Source: Mycobacterium pseudokansasii (lineage in GTDB: Bacteria; Actinomycetota; Actinomycetes; Mycobacteriales; Mycobacteriaceae). From it: a stretch of DNA of 64,000 nt. Position 1 is the first letter of the stretch. Every line of letters begins with the position of its first letter. Position numbers and translations under genes: made by a program. Below the pieces are notes generated by a model, which did no database searches, had not been told where the DNA came from, and worked only from the letters and a program-made list of their open reading frames with translations. Below are positions 2,384 through 18,046 of this stretch, in pieces. The stretch is from positions 4,216,325 through 4,280,324 of the forward strand of contig NZ_UPHU01000001.1 of NCBI RefSeq assembly GCF_900566075.1, in the 5' to 3' direction.

Positions 2384-3787
2384 TCAGTTGAGCCATTCCC
2401 GATGCAGACTCTGGCGCACCTGGCTTTGCCGCTCTTCGAGGATGTGGCCGAAGTCCTGCAGCAGCAACGGCTGACGCATCACGAGATGCTCGACGTGCTC
2501 GCGACCGATCTCCACCGTGGTCACCTCGTCGATCGCGTAGGCGTTGGAGAGATTGGGCTGCCGGGTCAGCGCGGTCAGACCCAGGAAGCCGCCTTCTTCC
2601 AAGGTGGTGATCGGCACCACCGATCCGTCGTCGGCCGTCGCGGTCAGCCGCACTCGCCCGGTGGCGACGAACATCATCTCTGCGGGCACCTCGCCCGCGC
2701 ACTGCACGAGTTCGCCGGCACCGTATCGCAGTATCCTCGCGTGCGACAGCAACGACTGCTGGTCGGCGTCGCTGAGCCGCAATGCCGGTCCCACAACCGC
2801 TTTCAGGGCTTCTAGCAAGCGCTCGGTTGTCGAGAAGTCGTCGTCGGCACCGTCGAGGTGCAGGTTTTCCCGGCGTGCGGCATACCAGATCCACCGCAGA
2901 AATGTCGCTCGAGCGGCGTTTTCGTCAGCCGGTGACCGCAAGCCGATGGTGGTGCAGTACTCGGCGCCGCCGACCGGTTCGGAGGTGGGGACGAAACCGC
3001 TGTAGAGCTGCGGCAGCTCGGCGGCAATCCGCGTCAGCATGGCACAAACCCGGTCGGGCGAGTCTGCGTCGGAAAATGTGGTCTTGATCGCCAGTTGGTA
3101 GCCGCCCGCCGGCCGGCTCAGATTGGTGAACGGTGTGCTGGCCAGCACGGAGTTCGGCGTGATCCGCAAGCCACTGCCGGTGTCGATGTGGACGGCGCGC
3201 CAGTTCACCTCGACGATTCGTCCCCGCGCGGTGGCGGTGTCGAGCCAGTCGTCGATCTGAAAGGGCTGCTCGAACAACATGAACAGGCCGGACACGATCT
3301 GGCCGACGGAGTTCTGCAACATCAGGCCGATGACGACCGATGTCACACCCACGGCGGTGAACAGTCCGCCGATCCGCACACCCCAGACATAGGAGAGGAT
3401 CACCGCCAGCCCGGCTCCGATGAGCACGAACCGAGCCACGTCCAGGAAGATCACCGGTAGCCGCTTGCGCCAGGAACCTTGCGGAGCTGCGGCGAAGACG
3501 GTCGCATTGAGCCCGGATAACAGCAGCACCAGCACCAGGAAACCGAATACCGTGGTGAGAATACGGACGGCATTGTCGTGGGCCGGGACGCCCTCCGAAT
3601 TCACGATGAGCAGCAGCAGCGCGCCCAGCGGCAGCAAGTAGTTGCGGAGCAGGCTGATCTGCCTGGCGAGATGACTTCCCCTGCGGCGCAACGTGTGCTG
3701 CACCTCGGTGAGAATGACGATCAGCACGGGCAGTCCCAGCGCGACCGAGACGGCCCAGTAGAACCACGAGGCGCTGAAGATGTTCAT
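2384..3787 (-). CDS. MscS-type channel with C-terminal cNMP-binding-like domain, copy 1
   Basis: 467 residues, Rv2434c-like. Hydrophobic helices at the N-terminus (about 8-25, 46-62, 75-95, 110-140) are followed by an MscS pore/beta region (GLMLQNSVGQIVSGLFMLF, then the beta domain with PFQIDDWL). A cyclic-nucleotide-binding fold occupies about residues 340-455. Likely an inner-membrane channel of the bCNG family. The phosphate-binding cassette is degenerate: the usual Glu of the FGE motif is Leu404, and the segment that should carry the Arg reads PNLSNAYAID with none. Start chosen at 3787 because it overlaps the stop of the upstream cyclase-like gene by four bases (ATGA), implying translational coupling. 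The frame upstream of this ATG is the shadow of that gene. Function is inferred from domains only. Confidence 0.88.
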   Translation of the reverse strand: MNIFSASWFYWAVSVALGLPVLIVILTEVQHTLRRRGSHLARQISLLRNYLLPLGALLLLIVNSEGVPAHDNAVRILTTVFGFLVLVLLLSGLNATVFAAAPQGSWRKRLPVIFLDVARFVLIGAGLAVILSYVWGVRIGGLFTAVGVTSVVIGLMLQNSVGQIVSGLFMLFEQPFQIDDWLDTATARGRIVEVNWRAVHIDTGSGLRITPNSVLASTPFTNLSRPAGGYQLAIKTTFSDADSPDRVCAMLTRIAAELPQLYSGFVPTSEPVGGAEYCTTIGLRSPADENAARATFLRWIWYAARRENLHLDGADDDFSTTERLLEALKAVVGPALRLSDADQQSLLSHARILRYGAGELVQCAGEVPAEMMFVATGRVRLTATADDGSVVPITTLEEGGFLGLTALTRQPNLSNAYAIDEVTTVEIGREHVEHLVMRQPLLLQDFGHILEERQSQVRQSLHREWLN

Positions 3788-5967
3788 TGGCGTTCCACCA
3801 ACCGCCAGATTTGCTGCTCGGTACCGCCGACCGAGATGGTTCCGGCCGGCGCGAACTTCCAGATGTCGCGCATCGCGTCGTGTACCTGTGAAGTGACATA
3901 GATGCCGGGTTGCGGTGAGCCGCTGTGCATTTGGTAGGCCAGGCTTACCGCGGCACCCCACATGTCGTAAGCGAGGCTGGCGCGACCGACCAAGCCACTG
4001 ATGACCTTGCCGGTATTGATTCCGACCCGCAGCCGGAGCTTGTGTCGTGACCGGCTGTTGAATCTGTCGATGATGCGCTGGATCTCGATGGCGAAGTCGA
4101 CGCTTCGGTGGATGTTGTCCAGCCGCGGGGTGGTGGCACCGCAACTGGCCAGGTAGCCGTTGTGGAACGTTCGAATCCGCTCCACGCCGAGCGCTTCGGC
4201 CGCAGAGTCGAACTGCCGGAAGAGTTCGTTGACGACCGCGACCAGTTCGTCTCCGGACAGGTCGTCGGACATGTCGTCGAGCCCGACCATGTCGGCGAAG
4301 ATCACGGCGACGTCCTGGTGTTCCTGTGCGACGGTCTGCACGCCCTCGCGATACCGCTGCACGACCGGTTCGGGCATCAATGACAGCAGCAAGCGATCGT
4401 TTTCCTTGCGCTGCTCGTTGAGCAGCTCCTCTTTGATCTTGAGGTTGCGGCTCATCTCGTTGAAAGCCGCAGTGAGATCACCGAGCTCGTCGCGTGACCG
4501 CACCGGAACGGTCACCTCGTAGTCGCCGGCGCTGATCCTCTCGGTGCCGGCCTCCAGCCGCCGGATCGGGCGCACCAGCAGCTTGGCAAGCAGCATCGAT
4601 ACCACGCAGATCGCCAGGGTGATCCCCGCGACCGCTAGCACCAGAGTCTTGCCGAACGTGGACAGCCGCTGATAGGCATCCCAGTCGTCCCGGGTGGCCA
4701 AGATCGACCAGTGCAGATCGGAGTTCGGCACATCGACCGGCGCGTACGCCTGCAGCTCCCGATTGCCGAGGTAGTCGGTGTCTTTCGTGACGCCGGTCTG
4801 GCCGCGTTGGGCGTACCGAACCCCCGCGCTGGGAACCGGCTGCACCAGAACGGTGGTTCCCAGCCGGATCGCGCTGTCCACCACGTCGCCTGGAGTGCCG
4901 CCCGCCACCGCCTCCCGTCGATACTTGTCTCGGTCCTGCAGAAACAGCCGTGAATCGGAACGCATCAAGTTGTCCGGGCCCACCAGGTAGGTCTCGGTCG
5001 AGCGGCCCATACCGACGGCTTCCCAGTGCTTGTGCGCGTTCATGATGTCGTTGATCTTCGAGATCGGCAACGGCAACGCCATAACGCCTTCGATCTTGCC
5101 GGCCATCCCAATCGGCGACACCACCCATGCGGTGGGGGCGTCCAGCTGCGGTTGATACTGCTGGAAATCGGTGATCCATACGAAGTCAACGTTGTTGGAG
5201 CGCAACGCTTTCCGGTACGCGTCCCGCAAGACCGTTTCCCGATAGGGCCCGGTGAAGATGTTGGTGCCCAGGTCAGGGCCTTTGCTCACGGTGTAGACGA
5301 CATTGCCGTGAAGATCGAGCAACAACGCGTCACGATAGTCGAAGCGAGTGACGATCCCGCGGAAGAAGTCGTTGTAGCGGGCATTGGCTGCCGACCACGC
5401 GCTGCCGTCACCGGCGTCGCCACACAACACCGATTCGCTCGCCGACGCGCACTGTGCGGTGTAGTTGGCCTGAAGGTACTTCTGCGAGTTGGAGGTCGGC
5501 AGCAGCGCATTGACGTCGACATCGTCTCCGGTCAGCTGACTGATCGGTTTGACCACCGCAGTGCTGTAGTAATTGACGATCGACTCCTGCTGGGCCGGGC
5601 TGATCGTGGCGTTGGACAACTGGTTGAAGCCGTCGGTGAACGCCTCGATCGCCTGGACGGCACTGAAACCGCTGCTATACACCTCCAGGGAATTGGTGAA
5701 CTCGCCGAAAAGCCCCTCCAGCTGCCGCTTGTGCGACTCCCGCAACTCGAGCAACCGCTCCGTTGCCACTTGCTGTAACGCGTTGCGCCCGGTCACATAA
5801 CCGGTGAGGCCGACGACCGCCACCGACATGATGCTGCACAGCAACAGCGTCACCAACAACTTCGATTGGATGCCCATCCGGAACAACCGCAGTAGCCGCC
5901 GCCCTCGATTCCCGGTTGGGGCGGGCTCTCCTTGGGATACCGGTTCCGTTGGCTGCCCCGACGTCAC
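3784..5967 (-). CDS. HAMP / class III nucleotide cyclase-like membrane receptor, copy 1
   Basis: 727 residues, Rv2435c-like. Architecture: TM1 near 35-60, a large extracytoplasmic sensor of about 380 residues, TM2 near 440-465, a HAMP linker (LVRPIRRLEAGTERISAGDY), a short coiled coil, and a class III cyclase fold from about 540. Alignment by eye to canonical motifs shows D559 (first metal Asp) and D668 (YDMWG) kept. The lysine position is R599, the second metal Asp is N603, and the transition-state Asn/Arg pair is S675/Q679. It is therefore probably unable to perform canonical cAMP synthesis, though the fold is intact. GTG start with aaaggaag upstream. Translationally coupled to the MscS-like gene. 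A second copy lies at 15839-18046. Confidence 0.88.
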   Translation of the reverse strand: MTSGQPTEPVSQGEPAPTGNRGRRLLRLFRMGIQSKLLVTLLLCSIMSVAVVGLTGYVTGRNALQQVATERLLELRESHKRQLEGLFGEFTNSLEVYSSGFSAVQAIEAFTDGFNQLSNATISPAQQESIVNYYSTAVVKPISQLTGDDVDVNALLPTSNSQKYLQANYTAQCASASESVLCGDAGDGSAWSAANARYNDFFRGIVTRFDYRDALLLDLHGNVVYTVSKGPDLGTNIFTGPYRETVLRDAYRKALRSNNVDFVWITDFQQYQPQLDAPTAWVVSPIGMAGKIEGVMALPLPISKINDIMNAHKHWEAVGMGRSTETYLVGPDNLMRSDSRLFLQDRDKYRREAVAGGTPGDVVDSAIRLGTTVLVQPVPSAGVRYAQRGQTGVTKDTDYLGNRELQAYAPVDVPNSDLHWSILATRDDWDAYQRLSTFGKTLVLAVAGITLAICVVSMLLAKLLVRPIRRLEAGTERISAGDYEVTVPVRSRDELGDLTAAFNEMSRNLKIKEELLNEQRKENDRLLLSLMPEPVVQRYREGVQTVAQEHQDVAVIFADMVGLDDMSDDLSGDELVAVVNELFRQFDSAAEALGVERIRTFHNGYLASCGATTPRLDNIHRSVDFAIEIQRIIDRFNSRSRHKLRLRVGINTGKVISGLVGRASLAYDMWGAAVSLAYQMHSGSPQPGIYVTSQVHDAMRDIWKFAPAGTISVGGTEQQIWRLVERQ

Positions 5968-6100
5968 TCGGCTTCCTTTCGCTTACGGCGGCAAGACCGG
6001 CAGATCACGCAGCAGACTAACGCGAAAATGCGACGAAAAACGGGTTTGGCCGAAACATGCCGCCCCGGCCGCCGCACCTCAGACATGGCGGGGCGCCGTG

Positions 6101-6184
6101 TTGGCCTATGTTGGCCTATGTTGGTCGATGGCCCGGTTGGTCGATGGCCCGGTTGGTCGATGGCCCGGTTGGTCGACGACTCGG
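6101..6184. repeat. intergenic VNTR-like tandem repeat
   Basis: Two copies of the 10-mer ttggcctatg (6101-6120) run straight into three perfect copies of the 16-mer ttggtcgatggcccgg (6121-6168) and a fourth degenerate copy (6169-6184, four mismatches at its 3' part). It lies in the divergent gap between cyclase-like copy 1 and the MPT64-like gene. The layout resembles mycobacterial MIRU/VNTR loci and copy number is likely strain-variable. Confidence 0.93.
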
Positions 6185-6251
6185 TCGTCACCGTGGCCGG
6201 ACGCTGGTCCGTCACCCCGGTGCCGCAACTTTGCCTCGGAGGGAACCTCGT

Positions 6252-6932
6252 ATGCGAATCAAAGTGCCCCTGGTTGTCCTGGCCGTCGTAGCGCTCGGCA
6301 GTCCCGCAATCGCCGCGGCCGCGCCCAAGACCTACTGCGACGAGCTGAAGGGCACCACTAGCGGCCAGGTATGCCAGATCCAGATGTCGGACCCGGCATA
6401 CACCGTCAATATCAGCCTGCCGAGCAACTACCCCGACCAGAAATCACTGCAAAGCTACGTCGCCCAGACCCGAGACGACTTCCTCAACGTCGCCAAGTCG
6501 TCTGCGCCCCGCGATGCGCCCTACCAGTTGGAGATCACCTCGACCAACTACGAATCGGCGATACCGCCTCGCGGCACCCAGTCCTTGGTACTCAAGGTCG
6601 TTCAGAACGTCGGCAGCGGGCAGCCGACGACGAAGTACAAGGCGTTCAACTGGGATCAGGGATATCGCAAGCCGATCACCTACGACACGCTGTGGCAGCC
6701 CAAGACCGACCCGCTGCCGACCGTTTTCCCCATCGTGCAAACTGCACTGCAAAAGCAGACCGGACAGCAGGTAGCGCCCACAGCCGGTTTGGATCCGGCG
6801 AATTACCAGAATTTCGCGATCACCAATGACGGGGTGACCTTTTTCTTCAACCCGGGTGAGCTGCTGCCCGAGTCCGCCGGCCCCGTCCAGGCATTGGTCT
6901 CGCGCTCCGCGATCGACTCGATGCTGGCGTGA
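6252..6932 (+). CDS. MPT64-like secreted antigen (DUF3298/RsiV-type fold)
   Basis: 226 residues. An N-terminal signal peptide (about residues 1-24, ending in an alanine-rich AxA site) precedes the mature start PKTYCDELKGTTSGQ. The rest matches the MPT64/MPB64 family almost position for position, including YPDQKSLQSY, IPPRGTQ, YRKPITYDTLWQ, NYQNFAITNDGVTFFFNPGE and the RSAIDSMLA C-terminus. MPT64 in the M. tuberculosis complex is a secreted immunodominant antigen (Rv1980c, RD2); its biochemical role is unknown. The start at 6252 is supported by ggaggg upstream; the longer open frame would read through the tandem repeat. It is placed divergently from the sensor/channel pair. Family assignment is firm; orthology to MPT64 itself rather than another family member is not. 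Confidence 0.9.
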   Translation: MRIKVPLVVLAVVALGSPAIAAAAPKTYCDELKGTTSGQVCQIQMSDPAYTVNISLPSNYPDQKSLQSYVAQTRDDFLNVAKSSAPRDAPYQLEITSTNYESAIPPRGTQSLVLKVVQNVGSGQPTTKYKAFNWDQGYRKPITYDTLWQPKTDPLPTVFPIVQTALQKQTGQQVAPTAGLDPANYQNFAITNDGVTFFFNPGELLPESAGPVQALVSRSAIDSMLA

Positions 6933-6944
6933 GCCAGGTAGCGA

Positions 6945-6981
6945 CGACAGTTGGCTCGAGACTAAAGCGCCACAACTGTCG
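6945..6981 (+). terminator. possible hairpin terminator after the MPT64-like gene
   Basis: A 9-base perfect inverted repeat (cgacagttg at 6945-6953 and caactgtcg at 6973-6981) with a 19-base loop lies 13 bases after the stop codon of the MPT64-like gene. There is no T-tract, which is common for mycobacterial terminators. It could equally be a protein-binding palindrome. Confidence 0.4.
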
Positions 6982-7594
6982 AAGGTTGCCTTGAGGCCAT
7001 TGGCGCACCGGAAACGCTCCTTCGGCTGTTCGGTGAGTTTGGTCACCGGTGCGGCTCAACACTGCACCCGCGCCCGGGTTTTCGGCCTGGGGCACGACGC
7101 TTACGCTAAGGCCCGGCCTGGCTATGCCGATGCCAGCTGCCGAATCGGTGGTGCCAAAGGCTCCGAATCGGTGGTTGGCGCCGGTTGCACTGTTGTCACT
7201 GTTGTCTCCGAGTGGCCGAATCGGCTGAGTTGCATGATAGGGCGGTTCCGGTTTACTGAAGGCGTTCATTTTCACGATCGAGAGAGGCAGAAAGCCCATC
7301 GTTGAATTGAGGCTAAGTGGCTGGTGAGGGCCTCACACCAGCAGCGGGAAGGGGCTTTTCGGAACCGGCCAGGCCAAAGACCCTGTTCGACATGCCGGTG
7401 ATGGCAGCAGCTGCCCAGGGGCGGCCGGTCGCAATCTGGGCAAGCCCGGACCGACCCACGAGCTGGATCGGGCGTTGTTCGTGGGATCCGAGTGCCGATG
7501 CGTCGGGATGGTTTGTGGCGCGGGCGCGCGCAATGCGCCCGGCCGTCAGGGTTTCGCACTGAACGGTCAGTGCTCCTAGTTGGAGGTTGTTACT
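6982..7594. other. non-coding stretch before the MoxR-region operon
   Basis: No open frame here has a convincing start, ribosome site or recognisable product. The repeated word ccgaatcggtgg/ccgaatcgg occurs near 7140-7215. This presumably holds the promoter of the rightward operon beginning at 7595, but I cannot point to a specific -10/-35. Confidence 0.5.
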
Positions 7595-8857
7595 TTGACT
7601 GATTGGTCGGGTGGGCGGTTCGATGGCCCCAATCCGGTGGGTCGATCGGATCCCATCGATCCGGGCGCAGATCGCTGGCGACCGCAGCCCCCGCCATCGG
7701 GTCAATGGGCGCCCCAACAACCGCCCGCAGCGGGGCCGTGGCAGCCGCAGCAAGCGCCACCGCAGAGCGGTTGGGTCAGCCAGCAACCTCCCGCCGGCAC
7801 CGAGTGGCAGCCCCATCCGGGTGCACCGGCGCCCATCGGGCCGCCGTTGTTGGGGCAACCGCCGGGCTGGCCACCGGCACCGGGACCACGCAAGAACCGT
7901 AAGCCGTTATGGGTGACGCTGGGTGCTGGCGGCGCCGTGCTCGTGGTGGTGGCCATTGTCTTGGTCATCACCCTGGCCGGCCGAGGTGGCCCGGGCCGCG
8001 GCGGGTCGGCCGGCGATGCGGTCAAAGGTTATCTGCAGGCACTGGCCCGCGGGGATGCCGAGGCGGCTCTGTCCTACGGCGCTGACCAGCCGGCCACCAA
8101 AGAACTACTCACCGAGGAGATCCTCAAGAAGCAGATCGCGCAATGGCCGATCAGCAATATCAGGATCCTCAGCGATGACTCGACGGGGGCCGGTGCCGCG
8201 GTCGGCTTCGGTCAGGTGCATGTGGTGGTTAACTTCGGGGACAAGGTTTCCGACACCACCCTGTCGATGAAAAAGGACCACGGTAGCTGGAAACTCCCTT
8301 CGGCGGCGATCAAGGTCAAGCCCGGACTCGCCGGCGACAGGGATGCTGCCGGCAAGACGGTGACATTCTTCGGTACGCCCGTCGGTGACTCCACGGTGTA
8401 TGTGTTTCCCGGCTGGATCGACGTCGGCACGACCAACCCGTACATCACGGTGACGGCGAAACCAATTTTGCTGGACCAGGTTTCGCTGATCAGCGAAACC
8501 TGGATACAGCCGACCTTCGTGCTGTCGGATAAGGGCCGCGACGCGGCGCGGGACCAGCTCGCCGCGGCGATGGCCAACTGTCAGAAGTCCAACCTGCTGG
8601 CCCCACCCGGCTGCCCGATGAGTGTGGATCCCTACGGCTTGGCCGACGGCACCGCCGCGTGGGGGCCCGCGGATATCAGCGCAGTCAAATTCGACAGCTT
8701 CGATCCCTATCGGTTGGCGCTGATGTTTTTCGGCGAGGTCAAAGAGCCGATAGCGGTCAGGACCACCGGCGGCGCCACCAAGCAGGGCGAGGCAAGCCAA
8801 TTCCTTTCGGGCACCGCCGATCTGGCCAAGACACCGCCGGAACTCAATTTTCGATGA
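7595..8857 (+). CDS. proline-rich N-terminus, single-TM membrane protein of unknown function
   Basis: About 420 residues. The first ~105 residues are Pro/Gln/Trp-rich and unstructured, with repeated QQPPA/QWxPQ-type motifs. One strong transmembrane helix (about 115-135, GAVLVVVAIVLVITLAG) follows a basic RKNRKPLW anchor. The C-terminal ~280 residues are a predicted outside domain resembling the DUF4878-type start (AVKGYLQALARGDAEAALSY) found in mycobacterial envelope proteins. The start is taken as TTG 7595 because a clean tggagg sits 8 bases upstream; the longer TTG at 7580 would place that Shine-Dalgarno inside the gene. It lies 37 bases before moxR, so it is probably the first gene of that operon. 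No enzymatic motif seen. Confidence 0.72.
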   Translation: MTDWSGGRFDGPNPVGRSDPIDPGADRWRPQPPPSGQWAPQQPPAAGPWQPQQAPPQSGWVSQQPPAGTEWQPHPGAPAPIGPPLLGQPPGWPPAPGPRKNRKPLWVTLGAGGAVLVVVAIVLVITLAGRGGPGRGGSAGDAVKGYLQALARGDAEAALSYGADQPATKELLTEEILKKQIAQWPISNIRILSDDSTGAGAAVGFGQVHVVVNFGDKVSDTTLSMKKDHGSWKLPSAAIKVKPGLAGDRDAAGKTVTFFGTPVGDSTVYVFPGWIDVGTTNPYITVTAKPILLDQVSLISETWIQPTFVLSDKGRDAARDQLAAAMANCQKSNLLAPPGCPMSVDPYGLADGTAAWGPADISAVKFDSFDPYRLALMFFGEVKEPIAVRTTGGATKQGEASQFLSGTADLAKTPPELNFR

Positions 8858-8894
8858 GCCCCGATACCCCGTTCTTGACGTGTGGAAGGCCGCG

Positions 8895-9896
8895 ATGACC
8901 GCAATGCGAGTGCAACCCAACCATCACGACGTCGACGCCGCCCAGCGCAGCATCGCCGCGCTGTCACATGCGTTCAGCATCAAGGTGGTTGGGCAGGATA
9001 ACCTGCGTGAGTCGCTGTTGATCGGGCTGCTCGCCGGCGGTCATGTGTTGATCGAAAGCGTTCCGGGACTTGCCAAAACGACGGCCGCCAGGGTCATCGC
9101 CGAATCGATCCACGGCCGGTTCCAACGCATTCAATGCACGCCGGACCTGTTACCCAGCGATATTCTCGGTACCCAGGTGTACGAAGCGGAAACAAACTCG
9201 TTCGCCACCCAGCTGGGTCCGGTGCATGCCAACATCGTACTGCTCGATGAGATCAACCGCTCGAGCGCCAAGACTCAAAGCGCGATGCTCGAGGCGATGG
9301 AGGAACGCCAGACCACCATCGCCGGAACGGTCTACCCGATACCGCAGCCGTTCCTGGTGATCGCCACCCAAAACCCGGTGGACCAGGAGGGCACCTATCC
9401 GCTATCAGAGGCCCAGACCGACCGCTTCATGCTCAAAGACATCGTGCACTATCCGACTGCGCAGGAAGAAGTGGAGGTCATGGTCCGCCGCGACGCCGGT
9501 ATCTACGACAAAGACCGTCCGATCGATCCGGCGATCGGACGGGACGATGTGCGCCGGCTACAAGCGGTGGTGCGCGGCATCCACATGGACCCCGCCTTGA
9601 TGCACTACGCAAGCCAACTGGTTGCCGTCAGTCGCAACCCGTCGCAGTTCTTACCGCCGCAGCTGGCCCGAGTGATCGAATACGGCGCCTCGCCGCGGGC
9701 TACCATTGCGTTCTGCGAAAGCGCCCGCGCGCTGGCACTGCTGCGTGGCCGGAACCACGTGCGGCCGGAAGACATTCAGCATCTGGCCCATCGGGTGTTG
9801 GGACATCGGTTAATTCTGGGCTTCGAAGCCAGCAGCGCAAAAATCACCCCGCAAGTCGCGGTCGACGCAATCCTGCAAGCGGTGCGGGTGCCCTGA
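8895..9896 (+). CDS. MoxR-family AAA+ ATPase
   Basis: 333 residues. Walker A is ESVPGLAKT (residues 54-62), Walker B is VLLDE (115-119) followed by INRSSAKTQSAMLEAMEER. A sensor-1 type ATQNP, the EAQTDRF arginine-finger segment and a C-terminal lid domain are present. MoxR ATPases act as chaperone-like remodelling enzymes, usually on VWA-domain partners encoded next door, and that is the case here. ATG 8895 is preferred over GTG 8880 because ggaagg sits 5 bases before it. H37Rv has three MoxR loci that I recall, none at this position. Followed after 9 bases by the DUF58 gene. Confidence 0.92.
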   Translation: MTAMRVQPNHHDVDAAQRSIAALSHAFSIKVVGQDNLRESLLIGLLAGGHVLIESVPGLAKTTAARVIAESIHGRFQRIQCTPDLLPSDILGTQVYEAETNSFATQLGPVHANIVLLDEINRSSAKTQSAMLEAMEERQTTIAGTVYPIPQPFLVIATQNPVDQEGTYPLSEAQTDRFMLKDIVHYPTAQEEVEVMVRRDAGIYDKDRPIDPAIGRDDVRRLQAVVRGIHMDPALMHYASQLVAVSRNPSQFLPPQLARVIEYGASPRATIAFCESARALALLRGRNHVRPEDIQHLAHRVLGHRLILGFEASSAKITPQVAVDAILQAVRVP

Positions 9897-9905
9897 GCAC
9901 ACATC

Positions 9906-10778
9906 ATGGGCAAGCACCTCAATCGGGCCAAATTGTATTTCGGTACCGACACTCGTGGCCTTCTCGACGGAGGTCGTTACGCGTTGCTGCATACCCGCAG
10001 CCTGGAATTCGACGACCTGCGCCCCTATGTGGCCGGCGACGACATCCGCGACATCGACTGGAAAGCCTCCGCGCGCTCCGGGTCGGTACTGATCAAACGC
10101 TATGTCTCCGAAAGGCACCACAAGATCCTGCTGATCGCCGACACCGGCCGGAACATGACCGCGCTGGCACCCAGCGGCGAGGTCAAACGCGACGTCGCGC
10201 TGCACGTGATCGGCGCGATCGGGTTGATCACGCTGGGCCGTTCCGACGAGCTGGGCATCGTGTACGGGGATTCCCGCGGCAGCGCCAACATTCGGGCGCG
10301 CCGCGGCGAAACCCACATCGAGAGCCTGCTGCACCGCTTCTACACCCACACCTGCAGCCAGCCCGCCACCAGTGACATCGTTACCCAATTAACCTACGTG
10401 GCAACGGGTTATCGCCGCCGCATGCTGATCATCGTGATCTCTGATGAACCCGACGCTGATCGCCGGCTCGCCGTCGCGCTGCAACAGCTGTCCGGGCGTC
10501 ACGACCTGATGTGGGCGATGGTCTCCGACATGCCCGCCGTGGGATCCGCCGAGGGCGAACGTGACGGTTACGACGTGGCTACCGGGGGTTATGTCCTCAA
10601 CGGCGCCACTCTGGGGCCCCGCATCGTCGACGCCTATCGTCGCCGCGAAGCCGCTCGGGTCGCTGGACTGGACGAGTTCCTGACAACCCGGGGAGTGCAA
10701 TTCACCCGCATCGGCGGCAGCGCCGAAATACGCGCCAAGATCGTCGCACTGACCGAGGCGTTCCAGCATGCCGGGTGA
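9906..10778 (+). CDS. DUF58 (VWA-fold) protein
   Basis: 290 residues with the DUF58 hallmark EFDDLRPYVAGDDIRDIDWK (about 34-53) followed by a von Willebrand A-like fold. The MIDAS-like position where DxSxS is expected reads D79-T-G-R-N83, so the serines that ligate metal are absent. DUF58 proteins are standard partners of MoxR ATPases. The start is the first ATG in frame, 9 bases after the moxR stop. The last 11 bases overlap the next gene, indicating a tightly coupled operon. Likely cytoplasmic; no transmembrane segment is obvious. Confidence 0.88.
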   Translation: MGKHLNRAKLYFGTDTRGLLDGGRYALLHTRSLEFDDLRPYVAGDDIRDIDWKASARSGSVLIKRYVSERHHKILLIADTGRNMTALAPSGEVKRDVALHVIGAIGLITLGRSDELGIVYGDSRGSANIRARRGETHIESLLHRFYTHTCSQPATSDIVTQLTYVATGYRRRMLIIVISDEPDADRRLAVALQQLSGRHDLMWAMVSDMPAVGSAEGERDGYDVATGGYVLNGATLGPRIVDAYRRREAARVAGLDEFLTTRGVQFTRIGGSAEIRAKIVALTEAFQHAG

Positions 10779-11241
10779 CCTGCTGCGCTACCTCGGCGGG
10801 CCCACCGGGTACTCCGGCTGGTGGTGGCTTGTGGCCGGTGCGTGCGCCGGCGTCGTCATCTGCTACTACGCCGGGGTGTATGTGTGGACCCTGCCCGCCG
10901 CGCGGCTGCGTCGTGTCCCGGTCATCCGCAGCGTGCATTCCTATCTGCTGCGTCGGCGCTTCGCCCGAACGATCACCACTATCGGCGGCCAGTATGGAGC
11001 CGGTCAGCTGTCAGACGGTCAGGCCGCCGCAGCAATCAGCCGCGCGCTGCGCGGCTTCCTGTGCCTGTCCACCGGCGCAGGGGTGCAATACATGCACATC
11101 GACGACATCGCCAAGCATGGCCAACTGGCCTCGGCTACACCGGTATTCGCTGCCCTCAATGACGCCCGGTTCGCAACCGAAAGCATAGACATGCACGGCG
11201 TGATTCGTGCAGCGACGGAGGTGATCCGCACGTGGAGCTGA
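10768..11241 (+). CDS. small membrane protein of the MoxR operon
   Basis: 157 residues. One clear transmembrane helix (about 18-40, WWWLVAGACAGVVICYYAGV) is followed by a basic, probably cytoplasmic, domain of ~110 residues (RRRFARTITTIGGQYGAG, ISRALRGFLCL). Position and topology match the DUF4381-like/BatB-associated small membrane proteins of Bat operons, but I do not recognise the family by sequence. It overlaps the DUF58 gene by 11 bases and the next gene by 10 bases, so it almost certainly works with both. Confidence 0.78.
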   Translation: MPGDLLRYLGGPTGYSGWWWLVAGACAGVVICYYAGVYVWTLPAARLRRVPVIRSVHSYLLRRRFARTITTIGGQYGAGQLSDGQAAAAISRALRGFLCLSTGAGVQYMHIDDIAKHGQLASATPVFAALNDARFATESIDMHGVIRAATEVIRTWS

Positions 11242-12326
11242 GATGGTGGGTCGTTTTTGTCGTCGGCGCCTGCACACTGGCCGCGGTGGTCGTCGCGGCA
11301 CTGCTGGCGCCGATGGCCAAACTCACCAAGGTGCTACGGCCACTGGCCCACGTCGACCGGCTCACGGGGATGCCCGAATACGCTCGTGTGGCGCGCATTC
11401 AATTCTGGTCAATGCTGATCACGCTCGTACTGCTGCTTGCGGTGTTCGCCACAGCACTGGTGACCACCTCCCGACCGGTCGGGTTCTCCTCGGCCAGCCG
11501 CAATTTCGAGTCGGTGCACCCAGAAGACATCATGGTGTGCGTGGGCGAGCCGGTCACCGACCCCACCACCGCCGGACTCTTGGCATACTTCGCCCGGCAG
11601 GTCAAAACATACGACACCCAACGCATCGGTATGACCTCGCCGACGCTGCGTGTCGTGCCGTTGACCCGCGATTACGACTACGCTCGTGCCCAGTTCAGCC
11701 GCTACGCCGGCATGGCGGGCCTTCAGCACCAACTGGAGACCACCAAAGAGCTGCCCGGGCCCCAGGCCGAGGAACTACGCGCGGGTATCAACGGCTTCTC
11801 CCGAGAAGTCAGTTATGCCGACTATGCGCGCAGTGTGCAAGACGTCTTGGCCTTGTGTATGACCGGGTTTCCGTCTTTCGAGGACAAGAGCACCCGCCGG
11901 CGTTCGCTGATCTACTTGGGGTACAGCAGCTTCCGCGCGGCAGCGGAAACCCGTCCGGCGTTGTTTTCTGATCAGCAAGTGAAGGACATGGCCACCGCCG
12001 CGGGTGTGCAGATCAACGTCATCGCCCGCGCTGACGTGGTCAAGTCACCCGAGCAGTCCAATCAGGCGCTGGCTGCGATTGCCAACGCCACCGGCGGCCG
12101 CTACAGCGTCTACAACCCGGCGGGCACGGCCGGTGCCAATCCCGCCGGTACCGACCCCACCCTGGCTGCATTGCTGGACAAGATCCGCGCCAATCCCCCC
12201 AATGTCGTGTTGCCAAGCGGCACAATCATCACCAATCGTTCGTGGGATTACCCTAACGTGCCGCTACTTTGCTCGCTGGCAGTAGCGGGACTGTTGTTCA
12301 TCTCGTTGGCGGTGCTGCGGCGATGA
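11232..12326 (+). CDS. membrane VWA-like protein of the MoxR operon (BatA/B position)
   Basis: 364 residues. Transmembrane helices are near 6-27 and 58-78 at the N-terminus and near 343-360 at the C-terminus, the layout of BatA/BatB proteins. The central soluble region is predicted outside the membrane and has a late IYLGYSSFRAA / INVIARADV / ATGGRYSVYNP pattern similar to the second half of a VWA domain. No DxSxS MIDAS motif is visible (the corresponding strand reads DIMVCVGEPVTD). GTG start overlapping the previous stop by 10 bases. Its own stop overlaps the next ATG (ATGA). Assignment rests on operon context and topology more than sequence. Confidence 0.76.
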   Translation: MELRWWVVFVVGACTLAAVVVAALLAPMAKLTKVLRPLAHVDRLTGMPEYARVARIQFWSMLITLVLLLAVFATALVTTSRPVGFSSASRNFESVHPEDIMVCVGEPVTDPTTAGLLAYFARQVKTYDTQRIGMTSPTLRVVPLTRDYDYARAQFSRYAGMAGLQHQLETTKELPGPQAEELRAGINGFSREVSYADYARSVQDVLALCMTGFPSFEDKSTRRRSLIYLGYSSFRAAAETRPALFSDQQVKDMATAAGVQINVIARADVVKSPEQSNQALAAIANATGGRYSVYNPAGTAGANPAGTDPTLAALLDKIRANPPNVVLPSGTIITNRSWDYPNVPLLCSLAVAGLLFISLAVLRR

Positions 12327-13393
12327 CATTTCAGCCGATCGTGTCCGCCGGCGTGCTGGTCGTCGTCGCCGTCGCGCTCATCACCATCCGCATGGCCGCC
12401 CTCTACCGGGTGCTGGTCCGGACCGGCACCGGCCGTTACCTGCGGGTGGTGCTGCGCTGGGGTGCGCTCACCGCAGCCGGGCTGCTGCTGGTCCTTGCCG
12501 CGGCCCGCCCCGGCCTTCCGCAGGGCGACCCGCATGGGCGAGCCGACACCACGCCAGCCAGTGGCTCCTCGGCCAATGCCAATGTGTTCTTCGTCGTCGA
12601 CCGGTCAGTGGACGGACGCGTCGAGGACTACTCCGACGCCAAGTCACGCATGTCGGGCATCCGCAGCGACATCCTGGCGCTGATCGACCAATATCCGCGC
12701 GCCCGCTTCGAGGTCATCAGCTTTTCGGCCAAGGCCAGCCTGGACTGGCCGCTGTCCGACGATGTCTGGAGCCTCAAACCGTTCGTCAAAGGGCTGTCGA
12801 CTTACACCGAGGTCCCCCAGGATGCGATGTTTCAGGTCAACGTGGCAGCCGCTGACGACCTGCTGCGGACCAAGCTGGCCGAAGCCGGCCAGCAATACCT
12901 CGACTCGAAAAACCTCGTGTTCTATTTCGGCGAGGGCGCCGGCGGCTCACGAGCTGCCCAAGGCGACTTTGATATACCGCACGCAACGATCGCCGGTGGC
13001 GCCGTGCTGGGCTATGGAACCGCTGCCGGCGGACCCATCCCGCAGGCCTACGTCAACGGCGACCGCGTCTACATGTGGGACAAGCAAACCGACCGGGCCG
13101 CGCACTCGGGCCTCAACGAAGGCGCTCTCAAAGCGGTCGCCGGTCAGCTGGGCATGCCGTATTTTCACCGAGACAACGGCCCCATCACCCCCGTCGTGCC
13201 CGCCGTCGACTTGACTGGCTTCCGATCAACCGACTCGCCAGTGATCGCGTCGGCCACGGTGGAGCGCACTGAATTGTATTGGTTGTTCACCGGTCTGGCC
13301 GTCGTACTGACGCTGGGGGAAATCTTTTTGACACTGCGCGAATTCCGCCGCAACCGCATACCGCACCGAGCGAGGCCCGATGCTGCAACGTGA
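12323..13393 (+). CDS. membrane-anchored VWA-domain protein (BatA-like)
   Basis: 356 residues. Two N-terminal helices (about 7-30 and 45-62), a VWA-like domain from about 85 to 300, and a C-terminal helix (about 310-335) with a basic tail. The MIDAS strand reads VFFVVDRSVDG, that is D93-R-S95-V-D97, close to DxSxS but with Asp in the last place. ATG 12323 overlaps the previous stop (ATGA), so the upstream open frame is rejected. Its end overlaps the next gene by 14 bases. Expected to work with the MoxR ATPase and the neighbouring membrane proteins in envelope assembly or stress resistance; this is inferred from Bat-operon context. Confidence 0.82.
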   Translation: MTFQPIVSAGVLVVVAVALITIRMAALYRVLVRTGTGRYLRVVLRWGALTAAGLLLVLAAARPGLPQGDPHGRADTTPASGSSANANVFFVVDRSVDGRVEDYSDAKSRMSGIRSDILALIDQYPRARFEVISFSAKASLDWPLSDDVWSLKPFVKGLSTYTEVPQDAMFQVNVAAADDLLRTKLAEAGQQYLDSKNLVFYFGEGAGGSRAAQGDFDIPHATIAGGAVLGYGTAAGGPIPQAYVNGDRVYMWDKQTDRAAHSGLNEGALKAVAGQLGMPYFHRDNGPITPVVPAVDLTGFRSTDSPVIASATVERTELYWLFTGLAVVLTLGEIFLTLREFRRNRIPHRARPDAAT

Positions 13394-14351
13394 CCCCCGA
13401 ACCGCCGTGCGTCGCACCTGGCAACGCGCGGCGTGGTGGTGGCAGTGCGGGCCGTCCCGGTTGCGGCTGCGCCGACGCCTGGTCGCCTACTCCTCACCGA
13501 TCGCGCTGGTGGCGCTGCTGGCAATCGGAAAGGTCATCTCGACCATGCTGACCGGCGATGCGGCCGTATCGGATTTTGCTCGTCACGACATCGACGCGCT
13601 CCGCGCCGATGTCGCCACGCTGAGCACGCTGAATATCATCGAGCCCGGCCAAGCGGCGTATATCGCCGGTGATCTCGCCGTCCTCGAAGGCCGACTCGAT
13701 GACGCCGAAAGATACTTCACCGATGTCTTCGACCGCAGCAGCAACGCCGGCTCCTGCCCGGCCCGCGTCAACTTGGAGCTGGTTCGCGAGACCCAAGGCG
13801 ACCTGGCGGCTCGCAGTGCCGACATTTCCCGCGCCGAGCAACGCTACAACAGTGCACTGCAACTCATTTCCGGCGCACCGCCGCACTGCTTCCAAGACAA
13901 CACCGACCCCAACCCCGACCGCCGTCGCATCCGTAACGACGCCGCGGCACGGCTGACCGACAAGATCAAAGCGCTGCACCTCCCGCCGAGTCCCCCGCCG
14001 CCTCCACCGCAAACCGCCAACCCCCAGCCACCGCCAACCTCACTGACATCCACGTCACTGCCGGCGCCACCGCCACCCGGTGCCACGTCGACGCCGACAC
14101 CGCCGCCACCGCCGCCCGGGCCCGGCGGCAACGGGCCAGTTTTCGGTCCCGGCGGCGACGGATCAAACGGCGGTCCCGACGTCATCAATGACGTCAGCCC
14201 GGACCGCATCCCGGTGTCCGGCAACGGGTCTGCCCCATCGCACCGCCTCGGCACCGGAGCCGGCAACAATCCGCTCGATCGGCTTCAGAACGCTCTCGGC
14301 GCTGCCGACGCCACCGGCGCCAGCAGCGAAGACACCGCCGCTCACAGCTGA
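13380..14351 (+). CDS. TPR-like membrane protein with proline-rich C-terminus (BatE-like position)
   Basis: 323 residues. A basic N-terminus and one transmembrane helix (about 37-55) precede an alpha-helical region (about 65-200) with TPR-like periodicity (AAYIAGDLAVLEGRLDDAERYF). A low-complexity tail contains two polyproline runs and then a Gly/Asn/Ser-rich end. Last gene of the seven-gene rightward block; it overlaps the previous gene by 14 bases. TPR proteins commonly close Bat operons, which supports the operon reading. Convergent with the second channel gene, 87 bases away. Confidence 0.8.
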   Translation: MLQRDPRTAVRRTWQRAAWWWQCGPSRLRLRRRLVAYSSPIALVALLAIGKVISTMLTGDAAVSDFARHDIDALRADVATLSTLNIIEPGQAAYIAGDLAVLEGRLDDAERYFTDVFDRSSNAGSCPARVNLELVRETQGDLAARSADISRAEQRYNSALQLISGAPPHCFQDNTDPNPDRRRIRNDAAARLTDKIKALHLPPSPPPPPPQTANPQPPPTSLTSTSLPAPPPPGATSTPTPPPPPPGPGGNGPVFGPGGDGSNGGPDVINDVSPDRIPVSGNGSAPSHRLGTGAGNNPLDRLQNALGAADATGASSEDTAAHS

Positions 14352-14438
14352 ACGGCGGGAAAATGGCACCTATACACGCTTCGGGCAGCAGTTTCATTCC
14401 TTAGGGGGCGCCAAACGGCACCCTCAAAGGGCGATAGC

Positions 14439-15842
14439 TCAACCCACCCGCTCACGCCGAGTCACCCGCTGCGCCTTGCTTTGCCGTTCATCGATGAGCC
14501 GGCCCAGCTCTTGCAGCAACAGCGGCTTGTTCATGACCACGTGCTCGAGGTGTTCGCGGTCGATCTCGAGCGCGGTCATCTCCTCCAGTGCCACCGCACC
14601 GGCAGGGTTGGGTTGCCGGGTCAGCGCGGTTACCCCCAAGAACGCGCCCTCGTTGAGCGTGCCGATCGGGACAACCGAACCGTCCTCGGCCGTCGCGGTC
14701 AGGCGAACGCTGCCGGCGATGATGAAGGCCATCCCCTTGGGGACGACGCCCGCGTGCTGCACGATCTCGTCGGCGCCGTAGCGCACCACCCTCGCGTAGG
14801 GAACCAGTGACTGCTGCTCGGTCAGGCCCAGCCGCAACTCCGGGCCCACCACGGTGCGCAACGCGTCCCACACGCGTTCGGTCGTCGAGAATTCGTCGTC
14901 GGACTCGTCAAGGTGAAGGTCTTCTCGTCGGGCGGCGTACCAGACCCACGGCAAGAACGTCGCCTGTGCGGCACCGTCGTCGGCGGGTGATCTCAGCCGG
15001 ACCGTGGTTCGGTACTCGCCGCCGCCCAGTGCGACGGTTTCCGGAATGGTTCCGGGCTTGAGTTGCGGTAGCCCACCGGCTATCCGGGTCAGCATCGCAC
15101 ACACCTGGTTCGGCGCGTCGGCGACGGCGAATTTCGTGGTGATCGTGCACTTGTGCGAGCCACCCGGGCGGGACAAGTTCGTGAACGACGTGGTTGCCAG
15201 CATCGAGTTCGGGGTGATCCGTAAGCCGGTTCCGGTCTCGATGTGGACCGCGCGCCAGTTCACCTCCACGACTCGGCCCCGCGCAGTGGGCGTGTCGAGC
15301 CAATCGTCGATCCGGAACGGCTGCTCGAACAGCATGAACAGTCCCGACACGATCTGGCCCACGGAGTTCTGCAGCATCAGGCCGATGACGACCGAGGTTA
15401 CCCCCAGCGCGGTGAATATGCCCCCGACCCGGACTCCCCAGACGTAGGACAGGATCATCGCCAGGCCGACGCCGATCAGCGCAAACCGGGCCACATCGAG
15501 GAAGATGGTCGGCAGTCGCTTGCGCCAGCTGTCTTCGGGCGCTGATTGGAATACCGTGGCGTTGAGCGCCGACAACAGCATGACCAGCACCAAGAAGCCG
15601 AACAGGGTGGTCAGGATTCGCACCATGCCGTCTTCGGCCCGGATCTGGGACGCCTTCACCAGGAGCAGCAGCAGGGCACCGAGCGGCAGCAGATAGTTAC
15701 GCAGCAGGTTCACCTGCCTGGCCAGGTGGCTCTTGCGGCGCACCAGTGTGTTGTGCAACTCCGTGAGGATGATCAGCCCGGCCGGCAATCCGATGGCGAT
15801 GGCGACGGCCCAGTAGAACCACGGTGCACTGAAAACATTCAT
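14439..15842 (-). CDS. MscS-type channel with C-terminal cNMP-binding-like domain, copy 2
   Basis: 467 residues, the same length as copy 1 and clearly paralogous throughout (MNVFSAPWFYWAVAIAIGLP against MNIFSASWFYWAVSVALGLP). The pore/beta region is the most conserved part (GLMLQNSVGQIVSGLFMLFE). The nucleotide-binding fold again lacks the cassette Glu (V404) and any Arg in the loop (PNPAGAVALEE), so it has drifted independently but in the same places as copy 1. Start 15842 overlaps the stop of the upstream cyclase-like gene (ATGA). H37Rv has, as I recall, a single Rv2434c at this locus. Confidence 0.88.
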   Translation of the reverse strand: MNVFSAPWFYWAVAIAIGLPAGLIILTELHNTLVRRKSHLARQVNLLRNYLLPLGALLLLLVKASQIRAEDGMVRILTTLFGFLVLVMLLSALNATVFQSAPEDSWRKRLPTIFLDVARFALIGVGLAMILSYVWGVRVGGIFTALGVTSVVIGLMLQNSVGQIVSGLFMLFEQPFRIDDWLDTPTARGRVVEVNWRAVHIETGTGLRITPNSMLATTSFTNLSRPGGSHKCTITTKFAVADAPNQVCAMLTRIAGGLPQLKPGTIPETVALGGGEYRTTVRLRSPADDGAAQATFLPWVWYAARREDLHLDESDDEFSTTERVWDALRTVVGPELRLGLTEQQSLVPYARVVRYGADEIVQHAGVVPKGMAFIIAGSVRLTATAEDGSVVPIGTLNEGAFLGVTALTRQPNPAGAVALEEMTALEIDREHLEHVVMNKPLLLQELGRLIDERQSKAQRVTRRERVG

Positions 15843-18046
15843 GATCGCTCCGACAATCGGTAGATCGGCTGGTCCACGCCGCCGACGGAGATGGTGCCCG
15901 CCGGGGTGAACTGTCGCACATCTCTCATCGCCTCGTACACCGGTGCGGTGACGTAGATGCCGGGTTGCGGTGAGCCGCTGTGTGTTTGGTAGGCCAGGCT
16001 CACCGCTGCGCCCCACATGTCGTAGACGACACTGGATCGGCCGACGAGCCCGCTGATGACGTTGCCGGTGTTGATGCCGGCCCGCAGCCGAAGTTCGTGG
16101 CCGGTTTGGCGGTTGAACCGGTCGACGATGCGCCGCATTTCCAGGGCGAAGTCGATGGTCCGAGCGACATTGTCCAGCCGCGGCGTGGTCACCCCGCAGC
16201 TGGCCAGGTAGCCGTTGTGCAATGTGCGAATCCGTTCGACCCCATGGGATTCCGCGGCCGAGTCGAACTGCCGGAACAAGTCGTCGACGATTCCGACCAG
16301 CTCGTTGCCCGACAGGTCCTTGGAAATCTCGTCCAGCCCCAGGACGTCGGCAAAGATCACGGTGACGTCTTGGTGCTCCTGGGCGATCGTCTGCTCCCCC
16401 TCGCGATAGCGCTGTACCACCGGCTCGGGCATCATCGACAGCAGCAGCCGGTCGTTTTCTCTGCGCTGCTCGTTGAGCAAGCCCTCCTTGATTTCCAGGT
16501 TTCGGCTCATCGCATTGAAAGCCGCTGTGAGATCACCGATTTCGTCACGAGTCGTGACCGGAATGGTGACGTCGTAGTCGCCGGCGCTGATCTTCTGGGT
16601 ACCGGCTTCCAGCCGCCGGACCGGCCGCACCATCGCCTGGGCGATCAGCATCGAGGCGACACAGATACCGAGAATGATGGCCACGGTGACCAACACCAGC
16701 GCCTTGCTGAAGGCGGCAACCGCGGCGAATGCCTCGGAGTTGTCGCGTGTTGCCAGAATCGACCAGTGCAGGTCGGAATTGGGCACATCTAGCGGCGCGT
16801 AGGCCTCCAGCTCCTTGTTATCCGTGTAGTCGGTGGCGGTGATGGTTCCGGTCTGGCCGCGTTGGGCGGCACGCAAGCCCGCGCTTGCAACGGGTTGTAG
16901 CAGCGTCGTGCCACCGAGTTGGATCGCGCGGTTCACCACGTCGAGCGGAGTGCCTGCGGCCACCGATTGTCGCCGGTATTCATCGGGGTCCTGCACAAAG
17001 AGCCGCGAATCAGAACGCATGAGGCTGTCCGGGCCCGCGAGGTACGTCTCCGTGCCCCGGCCCATGCCCGCAGCCTGCCACTGCTGGTTGGCAGTCATGA
17101 TCCGGTTGATCTTGGCGATCGGCAGCGGTAGCGCGATCACCCCTTCGGTTCTCCCGTCGGCCTGAACCGGTGCCACCAGCCACGCCGTCGGCACGTCCAG
17201 TTGCGGCTGATACGGCTTGAAGTCGGTGATCCAGGTGAAGTCAACGGCGTTGGCGCCCAGCGCTTTAAGGTAGGCATCACGCAGGTTGGATTCTCGGTAG
17301 GGCCCGGTCAGGATGTTGGTGCCCAGGTCGGGATCCTTGCTCAGGCTGTAGACGATATTGCCGCGGGTGTCCAGCAATACCGCATCGTCGTAATCGAAGC
17401 GGGTGACGATTTCGCGGAAGTAGCCGTTGAATCGCGCGTTGGCGGCCGACCATGCGCTGCCGTCGCCGGCGTCGTCGAACCGCATCGAGTCCTGATCCGA
17501 CGTGAACGGCGCGGTGTAGTAGGCCTGCAGATACTTCTGGGCGGGCGAGGTCGGCAGCAGCGCGGTGATATCGAGCTTTTCGCCCGTCGTTCGCTCCACC
17601 GGTTTGATGAGCTGGTTGTTGTAGTAGTTGACAATGGCCTGCTGCTGGGCCGGGTTGATGGTCGCGTCGGCCAATTGGTCAAACCCGGTGGTGAACTGCG
17701 CGACCGCCTGCACCACCGTCAATCCCCGCGCATAGATGACCAACGAATTCGTCAGGTCGGCAAACAGCGTATCGATTGCCCGCTTCTGCGATTCGCGCAA
17801 TTCGGTCAACCGCTCATAAGCTGCTGTCTGCAGTGAGGCACGGCCGGTTTGATACCCGACGATGACGACCGCGGCCACCGACACGATGCTCGACAGCAAC
17901 AGCAGCACCATGAGCTTGGACTGGATGCTTGCCCGGAAACGCGGCCGGCGGCGCCCCCCACTCCTCAGGCTCTTGGGGATCCTGCGCTTGCGGACCGGGG
18001 CGGCGGATGCCTCCGGCACGGAATCTGTTGCCTCGCCCGATATCAC
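15839..18046 (-). CDS. HAMP / class III nucleotide cyclase-like membrane receptor, copy 2
   Basis: 735 residues, paralogue of 3784-5967 along its whole length: N-terminal basic cytoplasmic tail, TM1 near 45-68, ~380-residue outside sensor, TM2, HAMP, linker and class III fold. The same catalytic losses occur: D567 and D676 are kept, while the lysine position is R607, the second metal Asp is N611, and the Asn/Arg pair is S683/Q687. GTG 18046 is chosen because aggaagg lies 6 bases upstream; the frame stays open to 18142 without a better site. The sensor domains of the two copies differ in the loops around residue 165, where copy 1 has two cysteines and copy 2 none, hinting at different ligands. 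Divergent from rbsK. Confidence 0.87.
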   Translation of the reverse strand: MISGEATDSVPEASAAPVRKRRIPKSLRSGGRRRPRFRASIQSKLMVLLLLSSIVSVAAVVIVGYQTGRASLQTAAYERLTELRESQKRAIDTLFADLTNSLVIYARGLTVVQAVAQFTTGFDQLADATINPAQQQAIVNYYNNQLIKPVERTTGEKLDITALLPTSPAQKYLQAYYTAPFTSDQDSMRFDDAGDGSAWSAANARFNGYFREIVTRFDYDDAVLLDTRGNIVYSLSKDPDLGTNILTGPYRESNLRDAYLKALGANAVDFTWITDFKPYQPQLDVPTAWLVAPVQADGRTEGVIALPLPIAKINRIMTANQQWQAAGMGRGTETYLAGPDSLMRSDSRLFVQDPDEYRRQSVAAGTPLDVVNRAIQLGGTTLLQPVASAGLRAAQRGQTGTITATDYTDNKELEAYAPLDVPNSDLHWSILATRDNSEAFAAVAAFSKALVLVTVAIILGICVASMLIAQAMVRPVRRLEAGTQKISAGDYDVTIPVTTRDEIGDLTAAFNAMSRNLEIKEGLLNEQRRENDRLLLSMMPEPVVQRYREGEQTIAQEHQDVTVIFADVLGLDEISKDLSGNELVGIVDDLFRQFDSAAESHGVERIRTLHNGYLASCGVTTPRLDNVARTIDFALEMRRIVDRFNRQTGHELRLRAGINTGNVISGLVGRSSVVYDMWGAAVSLAYQTHSGSPQPGIYVTAPVYEAMRDVRQFTPAGTISVGGVDQPIYRLSERS

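What the first reader, a model, noticed from the sequence alone, without database searches (positions are those of the whole stretch)
2384..18046. Duplicated receptor/channel unit bracketing a MoxR operon
Seen: two cyclase-like receptor + MscS/CNBD gene pairs, same strand, same ATGA coupling, identical channel length, about 12 kb apart, with a seven-gene rightward envelope/MoxR block and an MPT64-like antigen between them. Known: H37Rv has one pair (Rv2435c/Rv2434c). Inference: an ancestral pair duplicated or the block inserted between copies, and the receptor, channel and MoxR machinery may form one envelope-stress system.
Basis: partly seen in the sequence, partly recalled or inferred. Interest (0 to 1): 0.8.

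Follow-up and report, generated by a model that had tools for sequence, protein, structure and literature searches.

The report
Dead cyclase receptor wired to channel
Two copies of a linked gene pair, a membrane sensor with a broken messenger-making domain and an ion channel with a broken messenger-reading domain, flank an inserted gene block in a mycobacterium, and the pair may signal by direct contact instead of by a messenger molecule.

Summary
In detail: two same-strand receptor + MscS/CNBD pairs (receptors 67%, channels 69% identical; both channels 467 aa; both ATGA-coupled) bracket an esterase-family gene and a seven-gene MoxR/DUF58 block. The block looks like cargo: M. innocens and M. 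attenuatum have the tandem without it, M. gastri and M. simiae JAL-560 have other genes at that junction, and of 25 block copies sharing a contig with a receptor in sampled Mycobacterium genomes only the window's is near. Counter-hint: three of five genomes of one distant genus have a related MoxR operon beside the pair. The two units are not sisters (AU tests), and receptor and channel trees disagree, so this is no simple recent duplication.

The stronger finding is the pair. Of 136 near-full-length channel places, 134 lie directly behind a receptor. None of 105 receptors covering the domain keeps the full class III cyclase catalytic set; no channel (107 rows, 104 genes) keeps the Glu or Arg of the cAMP pocket, though folds look intact and the window's copies are under purifying selection. 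Unpaired rhizobial relatives keep the enzyme residues. Best reading, inferred: receptor and channel signal by direct contact, having dropped cAMP on both sides.

The parts
2384..3787 (-). channel 1: MscS pore + C-terminal CNBD-like domain, 467 aa, cAMP-pocket Glu and Arg absent
3784..5967 (-). receptor 1: TM + dCache-like sensor + HAMP + class III cyclase domain lacking catalytic residues
6252..6932 (+).
   Evidence: NF043047, 311 bits, cut-off 200
7580..8857 (+). block gene 1: Pro-rich membrane protein (weak Rv0361_Cterm match, under cut-off)
8880..9896 (+). block gene 2: MoxR AAA+ ATPase (AAA_3)
9906..10778 (+). block gene 3: DUF58 protein
10768..11241 (+). block gene 4: small membrane protein, no family match
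11232..12326 (+). block gene 5: membrane protein, no family above cut-off; VWA-like by position only
12269..13393 (+). block gene 6: VWA_2-like membrane protein (17.6 bits, under cut-off); true start may be near 12326
13380..14351 (+). block gene 7: TPR-like Pro-rich protein (sub-threshold TPR_12)
6933..14438 (.). cargo site: the stretch between the stop of the esterase gene and the stop of channel 2 differs between relatives (short spacer / MoxR block / another segment)
14439..15842 (-). channel 2: MscS pore + C-terminal CNBD-like domain, 467 aa
15839..18046 (-). receptor 2: TM + Cache-like sensor + HAMP + degenerate class III cyclase domain
18163..19029 (+). PfkB-family kinase (rbsK-like), frequent neighbour of the pair on the receptor side

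Best explanation
Each unit is a two-gene receptor-gated channel. An extracytoplasmic Cache-like sensor passes its signal through HAMP to a class III cyclase-fold domain that no longer makes cAMP. That domain acts as a protein module on the CNBD-like ring of the MscS channel translated right behind it, opening or closing the pore by direct contact instead of through a diffusible messenger. The two units in this genome are old paralogues kept side by side, not a recent copy. The junction between channel 2 and the esterase gene is a site where unrelated cargo has come and gone, and the MoxR block is one such cargo. Shown by computation: pairing, loss of catalytic and binding residues, purifying selection in the window's copies, predicted folds, different cargo at one junction. 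Inferred: direct contact, gating, and everything about the stimulus.
Against: No interaction was tested; AlphaFold2 ran on single chains only. A degenerate CNBD may bind another ligand: the Foldseek list includes trypanosome PKA regulatory subunits titled cAMP-independent, one bound to guanosine. The first metal Asp is kept in 77 of 91 and the substrate Asp in 91 of 91 Mycobacterium rows (less the four rows), so the domain may still bind nucleotide. In f39 the Asn and Arg are kept in 8 of 9, so the way of losing activity differs by family. In 10 of 144 receptor places no near-full channel follows; for eight of them one search shows a channel fragment or cut channel close by (read by eye), so some channels decay while the receptor stays. 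The three rhizobial controls are close relatives and count as about one lineage; only two MscS-CNBD controls were read, and one of them has lost the Arg without being paired.
Confidence: 0.5

Rival explanations
1. Repurposed ligand: the CNBD-like domain still binds a small molecule (a nucleoside or another nucleotide), and the receptor's cyclase-fold domain binds, releases or hands over that ligand. The link is chemical but not cAMP.
Against: The lost residues are those that (recalled) hold the cyclic phosphate and ribose, and the Glu site is hydrophobic in 68 of 92 Mycobacterium channels (L 40, V 20, I 6, M 1, A 1; Q 21, S 2, one gap). No candidate ligand.
Confidence: 0.25
2. Separate functions: the receptor is a decoy or inhibitor of other class III cyclases of the cell and the channel is an ordinary tension-gated MscS; they are made together but do not touch.
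For: Nineteen cyclase-domain matches are in the genome, and a degenerate partner could be dominant-negative; MscS channels can gate on tension without ligands (general knowledge).
Against: Does not explain why receptor and channel stay adjacent in 134 of 136 places and in other families, nor why the CNBD part is still constrained.
Confidence: 0.15
3. One reading: receptor, channel and MoxR block are one envelope-stress system.
For: The block lies between the copies in the window and in M. persicum (L055); a related MoxR-DUF58 operon lies beside the pair, divergent from it, in three genomes of one distant genus.
Against: Block absent from the same tandem in M. innocens and M. attenuatum and replaced in M. 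gastri and JAL-560. Of 25 block copies on a contig with a receptor only the window's is near. In f39 16 genomes have both, 8 of them on one contig, and only G309 and G249 have them close (compared by eye). In the window the block's last gene converges on channel 2, so these two share no promoter region.
Confidence: 0.1

Closest known systems
bCNG channels (MscS-superfamily channels with a C-terminal CNBD; Caldwell et al. 2010, seen only as a reference-list entry in PMC4560390; their gating by cyclic nucleotide is recalled)
   Same: MscS pore domain followed by a CNBD fold
   Different: pocket Glu and Arg absent in every channel row examined (107 rows), and found beside a cyclase-like receptor in 134 of 136 places
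Rv2435c / Rv2434c of M. tuberculosis
   Same: recalled as the orthologous pair; Rv2435c is described as having a double Cache domain (PMC4822843, one passage seen) and as a mammalian-type cyclase (PMC3961136, passages seen)
   Different: two units in the window's genome, with cargo between them
Rv1625c-type class III adenylyl cyclases
   Different: catalytic residues missing
MoxR-DUF58-VWA operons (Bat-like; name recalled)
   Same: order MoxR, DUF58, small membrane protein, VWA-like, TPR-like
   Different: here inserted at a variable junction between the two units

Membership tests
active class III nucleotide cyclase | class III catalytic domain fold | tested here: met
active class III nucleotide cyclase | two metal Asp, substrate Lys and Asp, transition-state Asn and Arg (roles recalled) | tested here: not met
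   0 of 105 receptor rows keep all six; five rows keep four, the most
bCNG channel | MscS pore with C-terminal CNBD fold | tested here: met
bCNG channel | cyclic-nucleotide contact residues (Glu, Arg) of the phosphate-binding cassette | tested here: not met
   none in 107 rows, one of them with a gap there
bCNG channel | opens on cyclic nucleotide | not testable with these tools
   needs electrophysiology
dCache receptor | extracytoplasmic double Cache domain | tested here: inconclusive
   33.3 bits in receptor 1, under the cut-off of 45; none listed for receptor 2; PMC4822843 reports it for Rv2435c
Rv3036c esterase family | NCBIfam NF043047 above cut-off | tested here: met
   311.4 bits against 200
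MoxR/Bat-like operon | MoxR AAA_3 and DUF58 | tested here: met
   197.9 and 89.7 bits
MoxR/Bat-like operon | VWA and TPR partners | tested here: inconclusive
   VWA_2 17.6 bits, TPR_12 13.5 bits, both under cut-off

The most novel reading that the evidence does not exclude
An actinobacterial lineage of signalling pairs in which a cyclase and its cAMP-reading channel became neighbours and then both lost their cAMP chemistry, turning a second-messenger circuit into a hard-wired receptor-gated MscS channel. In another class the unit is receptor-channel-receptor, suggesting two receptors per channel.
Probability: 0.4. Interest if true: 0.8.

Novelty: new variant of a known kind. Interest (0 to 1): 0.55.

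Why it matters
If true it shows how a second-messenger circuit can collapse into a direct protein switch, gives a function to a receptor annotated as an adenylate cyclase, and predicts a receptor-gated MscS-type channel in mycobacteria that can be tested with purified domains. It also warns against counting this receptor among the cAMP-making enzymes of the genus.

Tried and rejected
1. Campbell-type integration as the origin of the tandem: predicted one switch of affinity at the receptor/channel junction in both units. The sliding-window comparison showed a mosaic: the receptor's first 270 or so columns closer to unit 1, most of the rest of the receptor and the first part of the channel closer to unit 2, the channel's end slightly closer to unit 1. 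Rejected as a clean event; recombination among copies or transfer from another lineage remains.
2. Active rec1/rec2 heterodimer: set aside, both lack the same catalytic residues.
3. MoxR linkage as a rule: looked for in Mycobacterium and in f39; close only in one genus there. G517 (two loci) and G291 of that genus lack it within the 20 kb read.
4. dN/dS rows 'ch2 vs G029' were out of frame and dropped.
5. The receptor count (109 rows) held four rows whose cyclase domain is cut off or broken; one search found them and I dropped them (105 left). None of the rows comes from other cyclases of the genome. The channel count has 107 rows; three are repeat views of two genes (read by eye), so 104 genes.
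6. Literature: of 12 papers that name Rv2435c or Rv2434c I opened four; eight were seen as listing only. Shenoy et al. 2004 (PMC2447327) names Rv2435c ten times and Rv2434c three times by the listing, but only abstract and references are held; it may already report the adjacency or the missing residues. Searches gave nothing on this pair, 11 and 30 nothing in the listings. I do not claim that it is unpublished.
7. Viral, phage and E. coli collections were not searched for this pair.

Full report
Observation. The window lies at C1:4216325-4280324 of a 6.43 Mb genome in two contigs. Proteins of the tandem in M. innocens, M. persicum, M. gastri and M. attenuatum (recalled as members of the M. kansasii complex) are 93-97% identical to the window's receptors and channels. 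Receptors are 67% and channels 69% identical. In the own genome only these two full receptors match (next 29% identity over a part), and three MscS-type domains are found in all.

The space between the pairs. In M. innocens (L054) and M. attenuatum (L061) the order is rbsK-like gene, receptor 2, channel 2, esterase gene, receptor 1, channel 1, with no MoxR block; M. persicum (L055) has the block. Window and M. persicum match over the whole stretch, 8,959 columns at 84.8%. M. gastri (L056) and M. simiae JAL-560 (L057) share a different segment at the same junction (81% over 3.7 kb), which in M. gastri encodes a 1068-aa protein that I read as MFS transporter plus CNBD-like plus patatin-like parts, and a 596-aa FAD-oxidoreductase-like protein (by eye, no family search). 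The flanks diverge right after the stop of channel 2 and right after the stop of the esterase gene (compared by eye). G023 and G113 have the two units directly in tandem, with no room for the esterase gene. So the junction holds different cargo in different species.

Block elsewhere. Block protein 'i' has a match in 87 of 148 Mycobacterium genomes (E 1e-10); MoxR at E 1e-70 in 146 of 148, which includes other MoxR types at about 47% identity. Of the 87, 65 also carry a receptor. For these I pasted 74 block copies; 25 share a contig with a receptor and only the window's is near, the next being 111 kb away. The other 49 are on other contigs, so their distance is unknown. In family f39, 29 of 199 genomes have the receptor and 50 of 199 this MoxR type. 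Comparing the lists by eye, 16 have both, 8 of them on one contig, and the two are close only in G309 and G249 of genus g74; G510 of the same genus joins them. There MoxR and DUF58 lie about 1-5 kb upstream of the receptor and point away from it; two further g74 genomes, G517 and G291, lack this. This is the best remaining argument for a functional tie.

History of the pairs. In a tree of 62 receptor-channel units the window's two units fall in different clades; holding unit 1 and unit 2 rows together is rejected (AU p 0.0008; receptor alone 0.007; channel alone 0.0005). Receptor 1 groups with the single-copy receptors of a set that includes M. simiae- and M. gordonae-related species, and the alternative with receptor 2 in its place is rejected (p 0.010). 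For channels it is channel 2 that groups with that set (support 92.7, not starred), and the alternative with channel 1 is rejected (p 0.017). Affinity changes along the unit in a mosaic way. The split of the two units is therefore older than the tandem's present hosts, or one unit came from another lineage; losses and recombination followed. G105, G029 and G064 show only unit 2. These are quick trees with SH-aLRT support only, and the groups were named after seeing the first tree.

The pair. Of 136 near-full-length channel places in the genus sample, 134 have a receptor immediately 5'; the two others, in G003 and G111, are in genomes of 250 and 360 contigs and were not examined further. Ten of 144 receptor places have no near-full channel in the list; for eight a fragment or cut channel lies close by. 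Receptor and channel are adjacent in nine of nine f39 stretches. In G600 and G550 of another class the order is receptor, channel, receptor.

Loss of chemistry. Against the own genome's Rv1625c-like cyclase (L101), 91 Mycobacterium receptors that cover the domain show Lys>Arg 87 and Lys>His 4; second metal Asp>Asn 90 and >His 1; Asn>Ser 55, >Asp 8, kept 28; Arg>Gln 84, kept 5; first metal Asp kept 77; substrate Asp kept 91 (less four rows cut or broken). Nine of f39 lose the Lys and the second metal Asp and keep Asn and Arg in 8 each; five of the distant class differ again. None of the 105 keeps all six; five keep four. Among the channels neither the pocket Glu nor the Arg is seen (107 rows, 104 genes). 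Of four reference CNBDs of the own genome three keep both and one Crp-like protein has Asp and Pro. Relatives outside the pairing: three of three rhizobial receptors keep 6 of 6; the Azospirillum MscS-CNBD keeps Glu and Arg, the Rhizobium one Glu only. Both degenerate parts are constrained: dN/dS 0.067, 0.119, 0.050, 0.101 for the last 180 codons of the receptors and 0.085, 0.143, 0.116 for the CNBD part over the usable comparisons. AlphaFold2 models (mean pLDDT 78.8 for the channel, with weak transmembrane parts, and 84.2 for the receptor) match known CNBD and cyclase structures.

Mechanism. The residues needed to make and to hold cAMP are gone on both sides while folds, adjacency and constraint remain. 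Direct contact between the cyclase-fold dimer and the CNBD-like ring is the simplest account; a repurposed ligand is the main rival. The stimulus is unknown.

Literature. In the passages seen, PMC3961136 calls Rv2435c mammalian-type and says that five annotated cyclases of H37Rv have not been shown active, naming Rv1359. PMC11205783 (passages) reports Rv2434c up-regulated in a higA2 mutant and possibly involved in cAMP signalling. PMC4822843 (one passage) assigns Rv2435c a double Cache domain. PMC2447327: abstract and reference list only.

Noticed in passing
L186, L188, L194: MoxR-DUF58 operon about 1-5 kb upstream of and divergent from the receptor-channel pair in three genomes of one genus of family f39.
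   Followed up: partly
L195, L196 (G600, G550): Receptor-channel-receptor triads with overlapping open frames, the two receptors degenerate in different ways.
   Followed up: partly
L056:3584-8874: Alternative cargo in M. gastri: a 1068-aa MFS-CNBD-patatin-like fusion and a 596-aa FAD-oxidoreductase-like protein (read by eye); the segment is partly shared with M. simiae JAL-560.
   Followed up: partly
G009, G019, G043, G098, G106, G003, G032, G111: A more distant paralogue of the pair (channels 41-46% identical to the window's channel 2) in some mycobacteria, also paired with a receptor.
   Followed up: no
G045, G131, G046: Extra receptor copies followed by shortened channels, suggesting that the channel may decay first.
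   Followed up: no
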